Shown here one piece after another: positions 12,673-53,555 of a stretch of DNA of 53,555 nucleotides (position 1 is its first letter; every line of letters begins with the position of its first letter). The position numbers and the translations under genes were made by a program. The stretch comes from Nitrospirota bacterium. GTDB taxonomy: Bacteria; Nitrospirota; Nitrospiria; Nitrospirales; UBA8639. The stretch covers positions 1 to 53,555 of the forward strand of contig JAALKI010000018.1 of assembly GCA_011088105.1 (NCBI GenBank). Direction: 5' to 3'. Below the pieces are notes generated by a model. That model worked only from the letters and a program-made list of their open reading frames with translations, ran no database searches and had not been told where the DNA came from.

Positions 12673-13416
12673 TCATTGATTGGACGTTTCAGAATACAAG
12701 AGTAACTGTACCCCAATAACAAGAATCAAGATTACCCAACAGACCATCAGACGGGATTGGCCATTGGGCTGTGGAAGTTTTCGGACATGGACAGATTCAC
12801 AGAGAACCCGGAAGGCTCCTGCTGTGATCGCTAACCCACACATAATCGAATGGTGTATCATAATCTGATGCGCAGCTGGATGAGGGCCATGTCGATGAAG
12901 GAAAAGAAGAAGTCCTCCAAGAATCGCAAAAGCCGGCAAGGCCATTTGCCATCTACATCACTGAAAATGACCAATTCGGCCCAACCACTCGATAGCACCG
13001 ACAACTAACAACAATACCGCCAGTATTTTATGTTGAATGATTTCCCAATCACCGCTGAACATCGTCTGCATGAAACTCATCGATCCAATTGGTCAAGCAT
13101 CATGATCACTCCAAACCAGCAAATAGCTACCGAATCCCAACATACCCAAGGGCAAAAGAAATCGAACCCACGCAAGCGTATGGAACGCCAATCCCGTTCG
13201 TAACTCTGCTAAGCCAATCAGAATGACCGCCACTCCAGCGAGCGCATGGTTAAACTCTGAATAAGCAATCCCTTCCGGCGAGCCTTCCCATTGAACCGGA
13301 AGAGCTTGCTCCATGGATGGGTGAATCATCTGCCCCTCATGGGCATAGCTCAGGGTTCCTTCTATTGTCTGGATTCCGCAAAGAACAATCAGGATCTCGC
13401 ATATGAAGAATCCCAC
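12673..13416 (-). pseudogene. CopD-like His-rich membrane protein interrupted by two in-frame TGA codons
   Basis: One continuous frame of about 248 codons runs from a GTG at 13416 to the stop at 12673, broken only by TGA at 13093-13095 and TGA at 12958-12960. Reading through gives a coherent membrane protein with an N-terminal hydrophobic signal or anchor and about six more membrane segments. Conserved-looking histidines occur in FNHALAG, SDHDA, QHKILA, HRHGPHPAAH and IHH. The architecture recalls copper-resistance CopD-like proteins, but the family call is tentative. Both TGAs stand where Trp fits (SDHDA-W-PIG and FQ-W-CRW), so two TGG-to-TGA changes are the simplest cause. Other genes here end normally in TGA, so the code is not reassigned. 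Without readthrough it would yield pieces of 107 and 90 residues. Confidence 0.75.
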
Positions 13417-13581: not shown

Positions 13582-14253
13582 TTAATTAGGAAAATAGAAG
13601 GAAACGCCCACCAGTCCAAGTATGGCATTAATCCCTGTGTTTCTTTTCCCAATGTTGGCATTGGAAATATGGTGAAGTTTCATCCCAAGCGATAGACTAG
13701 ACACCATCTCTTCACTTTCAAGCCAGAGATAGTGAATACCAGGGCCAGTGTGGAGGATAAATTCAAATTGCGTGCTTTGCTCGGGAATACGCGGGGCTAA
13801 ATCAGTCCAGACCATGCCCGCACCCATATCCCAATATGGCATAAATCGCCCAAACGACAAAAAGTTATACCGGCCAATCAACGATCCACCAAATAACGAT
13901 GCACTAAACGGATCCACGAAATGTGCGCCAATTGGCTCAACGATAACCTCAAATGCCCCACTGAAGTAACCAGCCTCTAAGGCATCCGACAAGACATACC
14001 CAATCTGAGGAAGGACGAGTATCGCTTCACGGTTGGATGAATCGGCATTACCGAGACCAGTAAACGCATGCCAATACCCGGTTTGAAGACCCAGTTCAAC
14101 TGTGCCTTTTTTTACAATATCCTTGGCTTGCAGACCAGCCCAGGCTGGAGTCGCGAAAAGAATCATCCAGCCAACCAGCAACACCCAACACAACCCGATG
14201 AGGGCAAAAGACATTTTATGTGTTGCTGGTTTGTTTTTCCCGTCGCGCCCCAT
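13582..14253 (-). CDS. PagL-like lipid A 3-O-deacylase / acyloxyacyl hydrolase family protein
   Basis: About 223 residues from the ATG at 14253, with a signal peptide (hydrophobic run ending ATPAWA) and then a small beta-barrel pattern of alternating residues ending in SFYFPN, typical of an outer membrane protein. The motif HISNANIGKRNTGIN matches the PagL active-site region: His and Ser of the triad are present, but the place of the third residue (Glu in Pseudomonas PagL) is Asn. PagL removes the 3-O acyl chain of lipid A at the outer membrane. The open frame extends to 14373, but that N-terminus looks non-coding and overlaps the divergent lipoprotein gene. Activity is uncertain. Confidence 0.75.
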   Translation of the reverse strand: MGRDGKNKPATHKMSFALIGLCWVLLVGWMILFATPAWAGLQAKDIVKKGTVELGLQTGYWHAFTGLGNADSSNREAILVLPQIGYVLSDALEAGYFSGAFEVIVEPIGAHFVDPFSASLFGGSLIGRYNFLSFGRFMPYWDMGAGMVWTDLAPRIPEQSTQFEFILHTGPGIHYLWLESEEMVSSLSLGMKLHHISNANIGKRNTGINAILGLVGVSFYFPN

Positions 14254-14378
14254 GGAGTTCTCGATACCCTGTATGACTTTCACATGAGCTTCATAGCATA
14301 TGACTATTGGTCGTTGCAATCGATCTCGAGAGAACGATAGGCTTGTTGCTAATAGAGGAAATGATCGTCTCATTAATA

Positions 14379-14904: not shown

Positions 14905-16671
14905 TCAACGTGACGAAAGATAAGCCCTACCCGTTCCACGTTTCTGAGACATCGTCTTTTGTTTGTGGGTTCCTCGTTCAGGAAAAATGAGGGCCTTCCC
15001 TCGGATGGTTCGGTGATACGTAATCGCAAAGCGATGTGCTTCATCCCGAATGCGTTTGAGCAATTTCGTTGATGAGGCAGATGGCGACAATGTGATCGGG
15101 TTCCGGTTACCCGATAAAAACACCCGGTCCTCCTTTTCACCTCGCGCTTTAGCCAATCCAATAATCGGTATATGCGTCAAGCTAAGATTACCCAATGCCT
15201 TTTTCGCTGCCTCTACTTGACCAAGACCCCCATCAATGAGAATGAGATCGGGAAGAGAGAGGCGTTGGGAAATGGCAAGCGATCCACCATATCGCCGTGT
15301 TACCACTTCACACATGCTCGCAAAATCATTGGCACCTTCGACTGTTTTAATACGAAACCGACGATATTCAGATTTCTTGCTTTTGCCATATTCCCAGACC
15401 ACCATAGAAGCCACGGAATGGGTGCCCATCGTGTTAGAGATATCAAACCCCTCAATCCGAAGAGGTAGCCTGGGCAAATGCAAGAGGGATTGCAACTCTC
15501 TTCCGGCTTCCTGATCAGCAGCTTCAGCGCGAAGGTGATGGTACATGGCTGCGGTGGCATTCTCCTCCGCTAACACAACCAAATGCCGTTTTCTCCCTCG
15601 TACCGGAGCCACAATACGCACGGCATCGCCTTTTTTGCTAGAGAGCCATTCTTGCACAATCGTACTATCGAGCAGCTGAGTGGAAACCACCAGTTCTTTT
15701 GGCGGAATGAGTTCTTTGTTGTAAAACTGTTCGATTGTTGACTGGAGTAACTCTTCATCAGAGACCTCCCCCGCATCACTCCAGAAAAAATCCTTTCGAC
15801 CAATCAGCAACCCTCCGCGAATAAACAACATTTGGATATCGGCGACAGGTCCAAGCCGGGACAGCCCTAACACATCTTGGTCAACCGGCCCAATTTGTGC
15901 AACGCGTTGTTTTTCTAAGGTCCGTTGTATTTTAAAGATTCGGTCTCGGAGTCGCGCGGCCTCTTCAAAGGCTTCCGTGTGAGCCGCCGCTTCCATTTCC
16001 CCACGGAGATTTTTGAGCAACTCAGTGTCTTTCCCTTCGAGAAACATCCGAACTTGCTTGACGATCCGGTGATACTCTTCACGGGTTTGATTGCCAGTAC
16101 ACGGGGCAAAACATCGCTTAATTTCAAATTCCAAACAGGCCCGGTCTGCCGTTCCATTAATGTCGATTTTGCACGTCGCGAGTGGAAAGACTTTTCGAAT
16201 AACCTTGAGGGTTTCCCGAAGCGCACCGGCAGGAACATACGGGCCAAAATACAAGGCACCATCTTGCTTGACGCGACGGACAATGGAAAGACGAGGAAAA
16301 TGCTCACGGACAGGGAATCGAAGATACGGATAATGTTTATCATCACGCAAGACCACATTGAACCGAGGCCGGTATCGCTTCACTAAATTGCTTTCGAGAA
16401 TAAGCGCCTCGAGCTCAGACTGCGTCAACAATGTTTCGATATCCGCCACGAGAGAGAGCATGAGTTGCGTTTTAGGAGTCAAGTCGTGACTTCGTTGAAA
16501 ATATGATCGAACGCGATCGGCTAACACCCGTGCCTTGCCGATATACAGGACTTCATCATCCTTCCCTTTCATCAGGTACACACCTGGCTGGGAAGGAAGA
16601 TCATCAAGCTTGGCCTGGATGAACGGAGAACAAGAAGACGTTGAAGTCGTATCGTGTTGTGACGCAGGCAT
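14905..16671 (-). CDS. uvrC: Excinuclease ABC subunit C, lacking the C-terminal HhH domain
   Basis: UvrC makes both incisions in nucleotide excision repair with UvrA and UvrB. The 588-residue protein has the N-terminal GIY-YIG nuclease (GVYLMK and LYIGKAR, about residues 30-46), a Cys-rich segment, the UVR motif that contacts UvrB (EAFEEAARLRDRIFKIQ) and the RNase H-like nuclease with IEGFDISN, LILIDGG and RDEAHRFAI. Normally a (HhH)2 DNA-binding domain follows. Here the protein ends about 37 residues after RDEAHRF in a basic, unrelated tail (ending GRAYLSSR). No HhH-like sequence is found in the other frames downstream. The gene ends 43 bases from the convergent lipoprotein gene. Confidence 0.93.
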   Translation of the reverse strand: MPASQHDTTSTSSCSPFIQAKLDDLPSQPGVYLMKGKDDEVLYIGKARVLADRVRSYFQRSHDLTPKTQLMLSLVADIETLLTQSELEALILESNLVKRYRPRFNVVLRDDKHYPYLRFPVREHFPRLSIVRRVKQDGALYFGPYVPAGALRETLKVIRKVFPLATCKIDINGTADRACLEFEIKRCFAPCTGNQTREEYHRIVKQVRMFLEGKDTELLKNLRGEMEAAAHTEAFEEAARLRDRIFKIQRTLEKQRVAQIGPVDQDVLGLSRLGPVADIQMLFIRGGLLIGRKDFFWSDAGEVSDEELLQSTIEQFYNKELIPPKELVVSTQLLDSTIVQEWLSSKKGDAVRIVAPVRGRKRHLVVLAEENATAAMYHHLRAEAADQEAGRELQSLLHLPRLPLRIEGFDISNTMGTHSVASMVVWEYGKSKKSEYRRFRIKTVEGANDFASMCEVVTRRYGGSLAISQRLSLPDLILIDGGLGQVEAAKKALGNLSLTHIPIIGLAKARGEKEDRVFLSGNRNPITLSPSASSTKLLKRIRDEAHRFAITYHRTIRGKALIFPERGTHKQKTMSQKRGTGRAYLSSR

Positions 16672-50357: not shown

Positions 50358-51017
50358 ATGATGGATCGTAGACTTGAGCCGGAAATTATGGATGGGGAAG
50401 AACAGGCTCGCGTGTATGCCGCTGCTGACTTTGCCAAAGAAAACCAAGACTTTGTCGAGCAATTCGTCAAGACATACGACGATATGGAAAAAGCATTCGT
50501 GCTGGATTTGGGCTGTGGCCCAGGAGATATTCTTATCCGGTTGGCCCGTTGTCTTCCTGAGCTGTCACTGCTTGGTCTTGATGCCTCACCAGCAATGATT
50601 CGCCTTGCAGAAGATGCGGTGAAAGAAGCCGGATTCACTACACGCATTACACTACACTGCCAGCGTTTCCAAGATTTTACCCCTCCTGCCCTTGCCGATG
50701 CCATCATATCCAATAGTATGCTGCATCATATTCCCAATCCCTTACAATTTTGGTACGCCGTGAAAACCATGGCGAAACCACGAGCACCCGTTTTTGTGAT
50801 GGATCTGCTTCGCCCTGACTCACCTGAAACGGCACAGTCGCTTGTCGATCAGTACGCCGCGGAGGAACCGGAACAATTACGCCATGACTTTTACTATTCC
50901 TTACTTTCCGCCTTCACAGAAGATGAAGTCGCCGCACAGTTAGCCGAGTTGAATTTCAGTCGACTCTTCATTGATGTTCCCGATGACCGCCATTGGATGG
51001 TCTATGGCCGAACGTAA
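50358..51017 (+). CDS. Class I SAM-dependent methyltransferase
   Basis: A 219-residue Rossmann methyltransferase with motif I VLDLGCGPGDILIRLA, LLGLDASPAMIRLAE (motif II acidic residue) and the IISNSMLHHIPNP segment (motif IV region). The N-terminal region (residues 1-45) has no distinct domain. The substrate cannot be told from sequence; small-molecule acceptors are common in this group. An AGAAAAGAAG tract precedes the tandem ATGs. About 90 bases separate it from the HEAT gene. Confidence 0.87.
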   Translation: MMDRRLEPEIMDGEEQARVYAAADFAKENQDFVEQFVKTYDDMEKAFVLDLGCGPGDILIRLARCLPELSLLGLDASPAMIRLAEDAVKEAGFTTRITLHCQRFQDFTPPALADAIISNSMLHHIPNPLQFWYAVKTMAKPRAPVFVMDLLRPDSPETAQSLVDQYAAEEPEQLRHDFYYSLLSAFTEDEVAAQLAELNFSRLFIDVPDDRHWMVYGRT

Positions 51018-51211
51018 AGCCTCCCTTTTCCTCACACAACTTGAGCTATGGAAGGGCAGCACAACAATCAGTCGTGATGGATTGAAGGGACAGAGGCAGG
51101 AGCCAAAATACCTATTGCACAGACTGCTTTACCTGCCCGTGGACAGCCAAAAGATTGTAATGGTACACAGCTCGCCTATCGGACCAGCCCATAAAAGGAA
51201 GCATTGACGTT
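51018..51211. other. Intergenic region before the SpoU gene
   Basis: About 190 bases. The frames here are short and show no protein pattern. It may hold the promoter of the SpoU methyltransferase gene; no clear -35/-10 pair or terminator was seen. Confidence 0.3.
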
Positions 51212-51997
51212 TTGGAAAAATCCACCGCTGCCTTGCCATTCATTGCGAGTCAGCACAACCCATCTTTCAAACAGTGGCGCGCGCTTCTCACAACATCGGG
51301 CATCAAGCAGCATGCCCAGTTTTTGCTGCACGGCAAAAAGGTTGTTGAGGAAACTCTTGTCAAACATACCCAGCATTGCCGGGCCGTGATTACTTCGGAA
51401 CGTTTTTTAGCCCTTCCTCACGTACCGGCATCCGTCAAAATGTTTTCTTTATCTCATAGCCTGTTTCAAAAATTAGACTGTTTTGGCACACAGAATCCGC
51501 TCTTAGTTTGTCGGGTCCCGCCCTTGCCAATGATCGACTTACGAGAACCACCAGATGGCGTAGAAGTCCTGTGTCCCTTGGGAGACCCAACCAATGTTGG
51601 CGCGTTACTCCGAAGCTGTCAGGCCTTTGGTGCCACGAAACTTATTTTCCTTGAGGAAGCCACCCACCCATGCCACCCTAAATCTGTACGCGCTGCAAGT
51701 GGCGCCATATTTAACCAGCCCCTCTACCAAGGCCCCGCGCTGCAAAGACTCCACCAAGAACACCTAGACCACTCGACGATCGCCTTAACCATGCAGGGCA
51801 CACCGCTAACAAAGTTCACATGGCCCATCAACATACGCCTTGTCATTGGAGAAGAAGGCCCTGGATTACCTTCGGATCTTGACTTGCCCTGCATATCAAT
51901 TCCCATGCACAATCAAAACCATTCGCTAAATGCCTCCATTGCCGCAAGCATTGCGCTCTACGCTTATCGCCTCGCCCACCCGTGGGGTGTGCGGTGA
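51212..51997 (+). CDS. SpoU-family (TrmH-like) RNA 2'-O-methyltransferase
   Basis: A 261-residue protein of the knotted SPOUT class. The N-terminal substrate-binding region (about 15-100) includes FLLHGKKVVEETL. The catalytic domain has DPTNVGALLRSCQAFG (motif 1), IGEEGPGLPSDL (motif 2) and SIPMHNQNHSLNASIAASI (motif 3), the three SpoU motifs that form the SAM-binding trefoil knot. Family members methylate ribose of tRNA or 23S rRNA; the target here is unknown. The start is a TTG at 51212. Base composition is still like the rest of the window, unlike the next gene. Confidence 0.9.
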   Translation: MEKSTAALPFIASQHNPSFKQWRALLTTSGIKQHAQFLLHGKKVVEETLVKHTQHCRAVITSERFLALPHVPASVKMFSLSHSLFQKLDCFGTQNPLLVCRVPPLPMIDLREPPDGVEVLCPLGDPTNVGALLRSCQAFGATKLIFLEEATHPCHPKSVRAASGAIFNQPLYQGPALQRLHQEHLDHSTIALTMQGTPLTKFTWPINIRLVIGEEGPGLPSDLDLPCISIPMHNQNHSLNASIAASIALYAYRLAHPWGVR

Positions 51998-52052
51998 CTT
52001 GACAGGGCGGCGAGAAACACGGTACGCCTAGAGACGCTTCGACGCCTGGCCC

Positions 52053-52059
52053 AAGGAGG
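52053..52059 (+). promoter_or_regulatory. Strong Shine-Dalgarno of the 65-residue gene
   Basis: AAGGAGG lies five bases before the ATG at 52065. A TTGACA at 51999-52004 followed at 18 bases by TACGCC may be a weak promoter. The ribosome-binding site strongly supports translation of the small gene. Confidence 0.6.
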
Positions 52060-52064
52060 ACCCT

Positions 52065-52262
52065 ATGCCTGTCAATGCCCTACGAAAAGACCAGCCCCGC
52101 CCGACTCGACCGGCGCCGCGGACCACCCGCGTTGAGGGGGCCGCCCCACCCCTCTCCGAAGCCGCCCAGCAGGAAGCCGATCTCGCCAACCAAGAACAAG
52201 AAGCCCTCTGGGAAGCCGCCGATAATGCCATGACCCAACAAGACGGCTCCCTCCGCTGGTAA
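52065..52262 (+). CDS. 65-residue protein of unknown function upstream of hemL
   Basis: A strong AAGGAGG site precedes the ATG, and the stop is only two bases before the hemL ATG, so the two are probably translationally coupled. The first half is basic and Pro-rich (RKDQPRPTRPAPRTTR). The second half is an acidic helix (EAAQQEADLANQEQEALWEAADN), ending GSLRW. I recognise no family. It has the same high G+C composition as hemL, in contrast with the genes to its left. Confidence 0.7.
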   Translation: MPVNALRKDQPRPTRPAPRTTRVEGAAPPLSEAAQQEADLANQEQEALWEAADNAMTQQDGSLRW

Positions 52263-52264
52263 CC

Positions 52265-53555
52265 ATGCCCCCCCGTCCGGCCTTCGCCACCCCTCAATCC
52301 CTCGCCTGGTTTCACGCCGCCCAACGCGTCATCCCCGGGGGCGTCAATAGCCCCGTCCGCGCCTTTCGAGCCGTCGGAGGCCAGCCGCTCTTTCTCACCC
52401 GCGCGAAAGGGGCCTATGTCTATGACCTCGATGGCCATCGGTTCCTGGACTACGTCCTGTCGTGGGGGCCCATGATCTTGGGCCATGCCCCCGCCGCGAT
52501 CGTCCAACGGTTAACCCAGGTCCTCGCGCAGGGGACCAGCTTTGGCGCCCCGACCGTCCATGAAGTCCAATTGGCCCAAATGATTACCCAGGCGGTCCCC
52601 TCCATGGAGATGGTGCGTCTCGTCAACTCGGGCACAGAAGCCGTCATGAGTGCCTTGCGGGTCGCGCGGGCCTATACCCAACGTGAGGGCATTCTCAAAT
52701 TTGCGGGGGGGTATCATGGCCATGCCGACGCGCTCTTAGTCCAAGCGGGATCGGGGGTGGCCACTTTAGGCATTCCTGATAGTCCCGGCGTCCCGGCTAG
52801 TGTGGCGCGACAGACCCTGACAGCCCCTTACAATGACTACCCCGCCGTGGAACGCCTGGTGAGACGCTATGCGAAACGCCTGGCGTGTATCATTGTCGAA
52901 CCGGTCGCCGGCAATATGGGGGTGGTGCCCCCACACGACGACTTTCTCCCGCGCCTCCGGGCGTTAACGCAACGGTATGACATACTCCTGATCTTTGATG
53001 AAGTGATGACGGGCTTTCGGGTGGGGTATGGCGGCGCGCAAGGCCTCTATGGGGTCACGCCGGATCTCACCTGTTTAGGCAAGATTATTGGCGGGGGGCT
53101 CCCGGTGGGCGCCTATGGGGGCACGCGGGCGATCATGCAACAGGTGGCGCCGGCGGGGCCGGTGTATCAGGCGGGCACGTTATCGGGCAATCCATTAGCG
53201 GTGACGGCTGGGGTGGAGACGTTACGGCGCTTGACGCCGGGGGTCTACCGGACGTTAGAGGCGCGAGCGGCGGAACTCGCGGAAGGGCTGGGGGCGGCAG
53301 CGAAGCGCGCCAAGGTCCCATATCGGCAAACGCGGGTCGGGTCCATGTTGGGGGGCTTTTTTACGGCCCGGCGGGTGGTGGATTATGCCTCGGCGCAGCG
53401 GGCGGATACCCAGCGGTATGCCCGGTTTTTTCAGGGCCTCTTGCGCGAGGGCATCTATGTCGCCCCCTCGCAATTTGAGGCCGCGTTTCTCTCCACCGCC
53501 CACACCTCCGCCATGCTCCACCACACCCTCGCCGCCGCAAGGCGGGTTTTTAAGA
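52265..53555 (+). CDS. hemL: Glutamate-1-semialdehyde 2,1-aminomutase, runs past the window end
   Basis: A PLP enzyme that moves the amino group of glutamate 1-semialdehyde to give 5-aminolevulinate for tetrapyrroles. About 430 codons are present with no stop. Since the family is about 425-430 residues, only the last few are missing. Visible motifs are PGGVNSPVRAF at the N-terminus, NSGTEAVMSALR, GGYHGHADALLVQAGSG, IFDEVMTGFRVG (PLP-contacting Asp), the Schiff-base Lys in CLGKIIGGGLPVGAYGG, and QAGTLSGNPLA. The gene is much richer in G+C than the preceding 50 kb. Codons ending in C dominate the first and last parts, and codons ending in G the middle. Confidence 0.95.
   Translation, partial: MPPRPAFATPQSLAWFHAAQRVIPGGVNSPVRAFRAVGGQPLFLTRAKGAYVYDLDGHRFLDYVLSWGPMILGHAPAAIVQRLTQVLAQGTSFGAPTVHEVQLAQMITQAVPSMEMVRLVNSGTEAVMSALRVARAYTQREGILKFAGGYHGHADALLVQAGSGVATLGIPDSPGVPASVARQTLTAPYNDYPAVERLVRRYAKRLACIIVEPVAGNMGVVPPHDDFLPRLRALTQRYDILLIFDEVMTGFRVGYGGAQGLYGVTPDLTCLGKIIGGGLPVGAYGGTRAIMQQVAPAGPVYQAGTLSGNPLAVTAGVETLRRLTPGVYRTLEARAAELAEGLGAAAKRAKVPYRQTRVGSMLGGFFTARRVVDYASAQRADTQRYARFFQGLLREGIYVAPSQFEAAFLSTAHTSAMLHHTLAAARRVFK
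53532..53551 (+). terminator. Terminator-like hairpin inside the hemL 3' end
   Basis: Arms CCGCC and GGCGG enclose a GCAA tetraloop and are followed after one base by TTTTT. It lies within the hemL reading frame close to the expected stop, so it may be chance or a terminator that overlaps the end of the gene. The window ends here and the next bases are unseen. Confidence 0.3.

What the first reader, a model, noticed from the sequence alone, without database searches (positions are those of the whole stretch)
12673..13416. Membrane protein gene with two in-frame TGA codons at Trp-like positions
Seen: the 107- and 90-codon frames and the 48 codons between them lie in one phase, broken only by TGA at 13093-13095 and 12958-12960, with no indel. 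Reading both as Trp gives a continuous seven-segment, His-rich protein. Two nonsense changes in an otherwise intact frame could mean very recent decay, programmed TGA readthrough, or selection on the split products. Other genes in the window stop at TGA, so the code as a whole is standard.
Basis: partly seen in the sequence, partly recalled or inferred. Interest (0 to 1): 0.65.

Follow-up and report, generated by a model that had tools for sequence, protein, structure and literature searches.

The report
Freshly broken copper-family membrane protein gene
A gene for a membrane protein that is intact in dozens of related Nitrospirota bacteria has been cut by two stop codons in this one genome; it looks like an ordinary, very recent gene loss rather than a special way of reading TGA.

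Summary
The frame is as described. It runs on the minus strand, 13416 to 12673, and is broken only by TGA at 13093-13095 and 12958-12960, with no indel. It encodes a real, conserved membrane protein with seven predicted helices. None of the homologues (64 distinct sequences, mostly Nitrospirota) has either stop.

"Trp-like positions" holds for one site only. TGA1 replaces a Trp present in 83 of 83 covering homologue matches (motif SDHxAWPIGS). TGA2 lies in a variable loop, usually His, and Gln in the nearest relative.

Nothing supports TGA recoding. RF2 is present. TGA ends 196 of 562 long ORFs. There is no SelB or tRNA-Sec above cut-off and no UCA-anticodon tRNA among those typed. tRNA-Trp has a normal five-pair anticodon stem and is shared with relatives whose copy is intact. 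TGA2 is followed by T. Other domain-bearing genes in this genome are cut by TGA, TAG and TAA alike, one of them at an Arg codon.

The gene is single-copy and missing from many relatives. Nearly all conserved residues survive, so the breakage is very recent. A consensus error cannot be excluded without reads. The family is the unannotated C-terminal half of some CopD-type copper proteins.

The parts
12673..13416 (-). Interrupted gene for a membrane protein with seven predicted helices; homologous to the C-terminal half of CopD-type proteins of related genera
13096..13416 (-). Segment A, 107 codons from GTG to TGA1: N-terminal signal-like helix, two membrane helices and the SDHDA motif
13093..13095 (-). 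TGA1, at an invariant Trp (W in 83 of 83 homologue matches); followed by C
12961..13092 (-). Segment B, 44 codons between the two TGAs
12958..12960 (-). TGA2, at a variable loop site (mostly His, Gln in the nearest relative); followed by T
12673..12957 (-). Segment C, 94 codons plus the natural terminal TGA; contains the conserved HGPHPAAHQIMIHH stretch
13582..14373 (-). Upstream PagL-family gene; its homologue also lies upstream of the intact gene in the nearest relative (L031)

Best explanation
This is a very recent pseudogene in a Nitrospirota genome. An intact single-copy gene for a membrane protein, probably involved in copper or metal handling, took two nonsense substitutions: one at an invariant Trp codon and one at an unconstrained loop codon. 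Translation stops at codon 108 of 248 and no full-length protein is expected. Shown: one frame with two stops, intact homologues elsewhere, single copy in this genome, patchy presence among relatives, ordinary use of TGA, and other genes cut by all three stop types. Inferred: that the stops are real and fixed, that the protein is lost, and that its role was in copper handling.
For: No homologue has either stop. TGA1 removes an invariant Trp in a conserved motif. The gene is single-copy and dispensable: 27 of 60 relatives lack a match. RF2 is present and uninterrupted and TGA ends 196 of 562 long ORFs. Other frames in the genome are cut inside known domains by TGA (a P-type ATPase, a type II/IV secretion ATPase, a KAP NTPase), TAG (an AAA ATPase) and TAA (DnaJ_C); the secretion-ATPase TGA stands where a relative has Arg. 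tRNA-Trp is ordinary and shared with relatives. Of 45 columns at least 97% conserved, the query departs only at W108 and G193C. Protein-level divergence from outgroups equals that of the intact relative (pN 0.297 vs 0.290 and 0.295 vs 0.313). So few missense lesions are unremarkable for young decay (P 0.44-0.60 for at most one conserved missense change per neutral nonsense change).
Against: The frame is unusually clean for a gene with two stops, which also fits a consensus error or a gene still in use. If both stops arose after constraint was lost, the chance of so few conserved-site changes falls to 0.16-0.31. No reads and no second genome of this genus were available, so fixation is not shown. 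Most genes with homologues in the sampled relatives are intact, so this genome is not in wholesale decay.
Confidence: 0.8

Rival explanations
1. Sequencing, consensus or strain-mixing artefact: the population carries an intact gene and one or both TGAs are wrong calls or a minor variant.
For: All but two of the most conserved residues are intact. The genome is a 70-contig draft. No congeneric genome was found among those searched.
Against: Two separate substitutions about 135 bases apart without any indel is not a typical error pattern. Other genes in the same genome carry in-frame stops. No frameshifted gene turned up in this genome among the 266 ORFs of three relatives that could be compared with it, so its consensus does not look poor.
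Confidence: 0.12
2. Leaky or programmed TGA readthrough (near-cognate tRNA-Trp) still gives some full-length protein, so the gene is a low-expression allele under selection.
For: TGA1 is at a Trp position and followed by C, a leaky context (PMC5289835). Conserved residues after the stops are kept. In-frame stops with dN/dS below 1 have been reported widely in bacteria (PMC7918605).
Against: TGA2 is not at a Trp site and is followed by T, which PMC5289835 associates with reduced readthrough. No relative shares the stops. No RNA structure of note follows TGA1 (z 0.38) or TGA2 (z -1.31). tRNA-Trp has a five-pair anticodon stem and is nearly the same in relatives with an intact gene. There is no SelB or tRNA-Sec above cut-off. 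Other genes are cut by TAG and TAA too. Two stops in series would multiply the loss.
Confidence: 0.06
3. Selection on split products: the pieces before and after the stops are made as separate proteins.
For: An ATG opens the 90-codon frame shortly after TGA2.
Against: No homologue is split at either place. TGA1 removes an invariant Trp. By eye there is no convincing ribosome-binding sequence before the ATG at 12945.
Confidence: 0.02

Closest known systems
CopD-type copper resistance proteins with a C-terminal extension (PF05425 plus an unnamed domain), loci L028 and L030
   Same: The C-terminal half aligns over the whole conserved part with the query (25-26% identity) and shares the invariant His, W108 and Gly residues. 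L028 has CopC next door.
   Different: The window protein lacks the PF05425 part. It is a stand-alone protein with a short N-terminal signal-like helix.
Uncharacterised stand-alone Nitrospirota membrane protein (L002/L031, 63% identical; common in Nitrospira between a PCP_red-domain gene and a YebC-like gene)
   Same: Same motif set over the whole conserved part.
   Different: Uninterrupted in the relatives; two stops here.
Human TMEM45A (PDB 7oqz)
   Same: Best fold match of the predicted model: Foldseek probability 1.00, TM-score 0.52.
   Different: E-value 0.042, 14% identity; a lead only. Membership not shown.

Membership tests
Recent bacterial pseudogene (nonsense type) | In-frame stops absent from homologues | tested here: met
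Recent bacterial pseudogene (nonsense type) | At least one lesion at a functionally constrained residue | tested here: met
   TGA1 at an invariant Trp
Recent bacterial pseudogene (nonsense type) | Relaxed constraint after the lesion | tested here: inconclusive
   Too young: one other conserved-site change, dS saturated against the nearest relative
Recent bacterial pseudogene (nonsense type) | No full-length product | not testable with these tools
   needs proteomics
TGA reassigned to Trp (code 4 type) | TGA rare or absent as terminator, RF2 lost, tRNA-Trp(UCA) present | tested here: not met
   TGA ends 196 of 562 long ORFs; RF2 present; only tRNA-Trp(CCA) seen among the tRNAs typed
Selenoprotein | SelB and tRNA-Sec present; Cys at the site in homologues | tested here: not met
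   homologues have Trp at TGA1 and mostly His at TGA2
Programmed stop readthrough | Stop conserved across homologues with coding constraint on both sides | tested here: not met
CopD (PF05425) | Match to the CopD domain itself | tested here: not met
   No PF05425 match in the window protein or stand-alone homologues; only the extra C-terminal part of longer CopD proteins is shared

The most novel reading that the evidence does not exclude
The gene is still used: low-level readthrough of both TGAs gives a little full-length protein, or the TGA alleles are kept in the population as an on/off polymorphism of a copper-related membrane protein.
Probability: 0.05. Interest if true: 0.45.

Novelty: new member of a known kind. 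Interest (0 to 1): 0.12.

Why it matters
It is one instance of gene loss caught early in a Nitrospirota lineage and does not bear on the genetic code. The by-product is more useful: a widespread, unannotated His-rich membrane domain with invariant His, Trp and Gly residues, found alone or fused to CopD, that could be tested for a role in copper or metal handling.

Tried and rejected
1. UvrC in the window (14905-16671) looked truncated to me, but UvrC frames in relatives are of the same length, so it is not broken. 2. A pairwise screen for interrupted genes with G010 ORFs gave many false hits from antisense ORFs full of stops; by my reading of the list these were discarded and only the coherent sense cases kept. 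3. tRNA-Trp with a shortened anticodon stem (PMC13092985) as a cause of UGA reading: the stem has five pairs. The D stem has a T-A pair where an E. coli UGA suppressor carries A24 (my recollection), but near-identical tRNA-Trp sequences occur in 11 relatives, including the one with the closest intact gene. 4. A remnant of the extra gene that lies between the PagL homologue and the intact membrane gene in L031: none found in the fetched half of the genome. 5. dN/dS on the query branch: dS saturated.

Full report
Observation. The minus-strand frame 13416-12673 was read directly. It begins at GTG 13416, meets TGA at 13093-13095 (codon 108) and at 12958-12960 (codon 153), and ends at TGA 12673-12675. 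The coordinates and the 107/48/90-codon description are right and there is no indel. An order-4 coding model trained on 562 long ORFs from 1.35 Mb of the same genome gives positive scores for all three segments in this phase (0.133, 0.136 and 0.033 bits per codon) and clearly negative scores in the other two phases. The whole reading has one match in its own genome, matches in 33 of 60 relatives and 52 matching loci in the genome collection, nearly all Nitrospirota plus a few Rokubacteria.

What the homologues show. In every homologous match that covers codon 108 (83 of 83) the residue is Trp, in most of them in the motif SDHxAWPIGS. At codon 153 the column is variable: His 61, then W, Q, R, N, D and others; the W cases come from rows with gaps or poor alignment at that point. 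The nearest relatives (L002 and L031, 63% identical, apparently the same contig) have Gln there. None of the homologues stops at either place.

The protein. The predicted model (mean pLDDT 77) has seven long helices: one signal-like N-terminal helix and six in the conserved part. Invariant residues include H57, H129, H174, H176, H189, W43, W83 and W108. No Pfam or NCBIfam family covers the window protein above its cut-off, although one homologue passes the LiaF-TM cut-off. In two other genera of the same taxonomic family it forms the C-terminal half of 540-residue CopD-type proteins; in L028 the next gene is CopC. In Nitrospira it stands between a PCP_red-domain gene and a YebC-like gene (the YebC name is from my knowledge of the sequence). 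In the nearest relative it follows a PagL-like gene, as it does here, but with an additional gene in between. The best fold match is human TMEM45A (TM-score 0.52, E 0.042), a lead only. A role in copper or metal handling is an inference from the CopD fusion and the His residues.

Is TGA special here? RF2 is present and uninterrupted. Of 562 ORFs of 250 or more codons, 258 end in TAA, 196 in TGA and 108 in TAG. No tRNA-Sec or SelB reaches its cut-off (the best tRNA-Sec-like hits are tRNA-Ser, -Arg, -Leu and -Gly, and the SelB-like hits are other translation GTPases by my reading). tRNA-Trp(CCA) has a normal five-pair anticodon stem, unlike the UGA-reading form discussed in PMC13092985, and near-identical copies occur in 11 of the 20 relatives searched, including G001 with the intact gene. 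TGA1 is followed by C, a leaky context; TGA2 by T, which PMC5289835 associates with reduced readthrough. The RNA downstream of the stops is not unusual (z 0.38 and -1.31).

Other interrupted genes. A scan for stops with coding signal on both sides, followed by Pfam on the read-through frames with X at the stop, shows domains that span stops of all three kinds: a cation P-type ATPase (L138, TGA), a type II/IV secretion ATPase (L143, TGA), a KAP NTPase (L137, TGA, inside the P-loop), an AAA ATPase (L150, TAG) and a DnaJ_C domain (L123, TAA). In the secretion ATPase the TGA stands where a relative has Arg. So no single amino acid could be meant by TGA, and TGA is not singled out. These are scattered cases, not wholesale decay: the pairwise comparison with three relatives found only this gene and the secretion ATPase as coherent interruptions among the genes tested (38, 110 and 118 query ORFs).

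How recent. Of 45 columns conserved in at least 97% of homologues, the query departs only at W108 (the stop) and G193C. Its non-synonymous distance to outgroups is the same as that of the intact relative. Simple counting gives a probability of 0.44-0.60 for so few conserved-site changes while one neutral nonsense change is awaited, and 0.16-0.31 if both nonsense changes were neutral. This fits very recent loss; it would also fit a consensus error or a gene still in use at a low level.

Verdict. An ordinary, very recent nonsense pseudogene of an unannotated CopD-associated membrane protein (0.80). Rivals are an artefact or polymorphism (0.12), leaky readthrough (0.06) and split products (0.02). 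Reads and proteomics, which were not available, would decide.

Noticed in passing
L138:15236-15238, L143:2260-2262, L137:12897-12899, L150:6692-6694, L123:10069-10071 (all from the same genome): Other genes whose Pfam domains span in-frame TGA, TAG or TAA stops: P-type ATPase, secretion ATPase, KAP NTPase, AAA ATPase (with an eCIS core domain in the same frame) and DnaJ_C.
   Followed up: partly
L028:1384-3009, L030:466-2082: CopD-type proteins carry an unnamed His-rich C-terminal domain that exists alone in many Nitrospirota; the window protein has no Pfam or NCBIfam match above cut-off.
   Followed up: partly
L076:279-873: Another Nitrospira copy of the same gene aligns in two pieces that overlap in different frames (279-557 and 547-873), so it may be frameshifted.
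   Followed up: no
L064, L074, L075: Two tandem copies of the membrane protein gene lie next to each other in some Nitrospira genomes.
   Followed up: no
14905-16671 (-): UvrC has no helix-hairpin-helix match at its C-terminus; relatives have frames of similar length, so this seems lineage-typical.
   Followed up: partly
L234:2912-2987: tRNA-Trp(CCA) has a D stem with a T-A pair at the position where an E. coli UGA suppressor carries A24 (recollection); the sequence is conserved in the taxonomic family.
   Followed up: partly
51001-52500: G+C rises to 56% against about 50% in the rest of the window, around the start of an aminotransferase-like gene.
   Followed up: no
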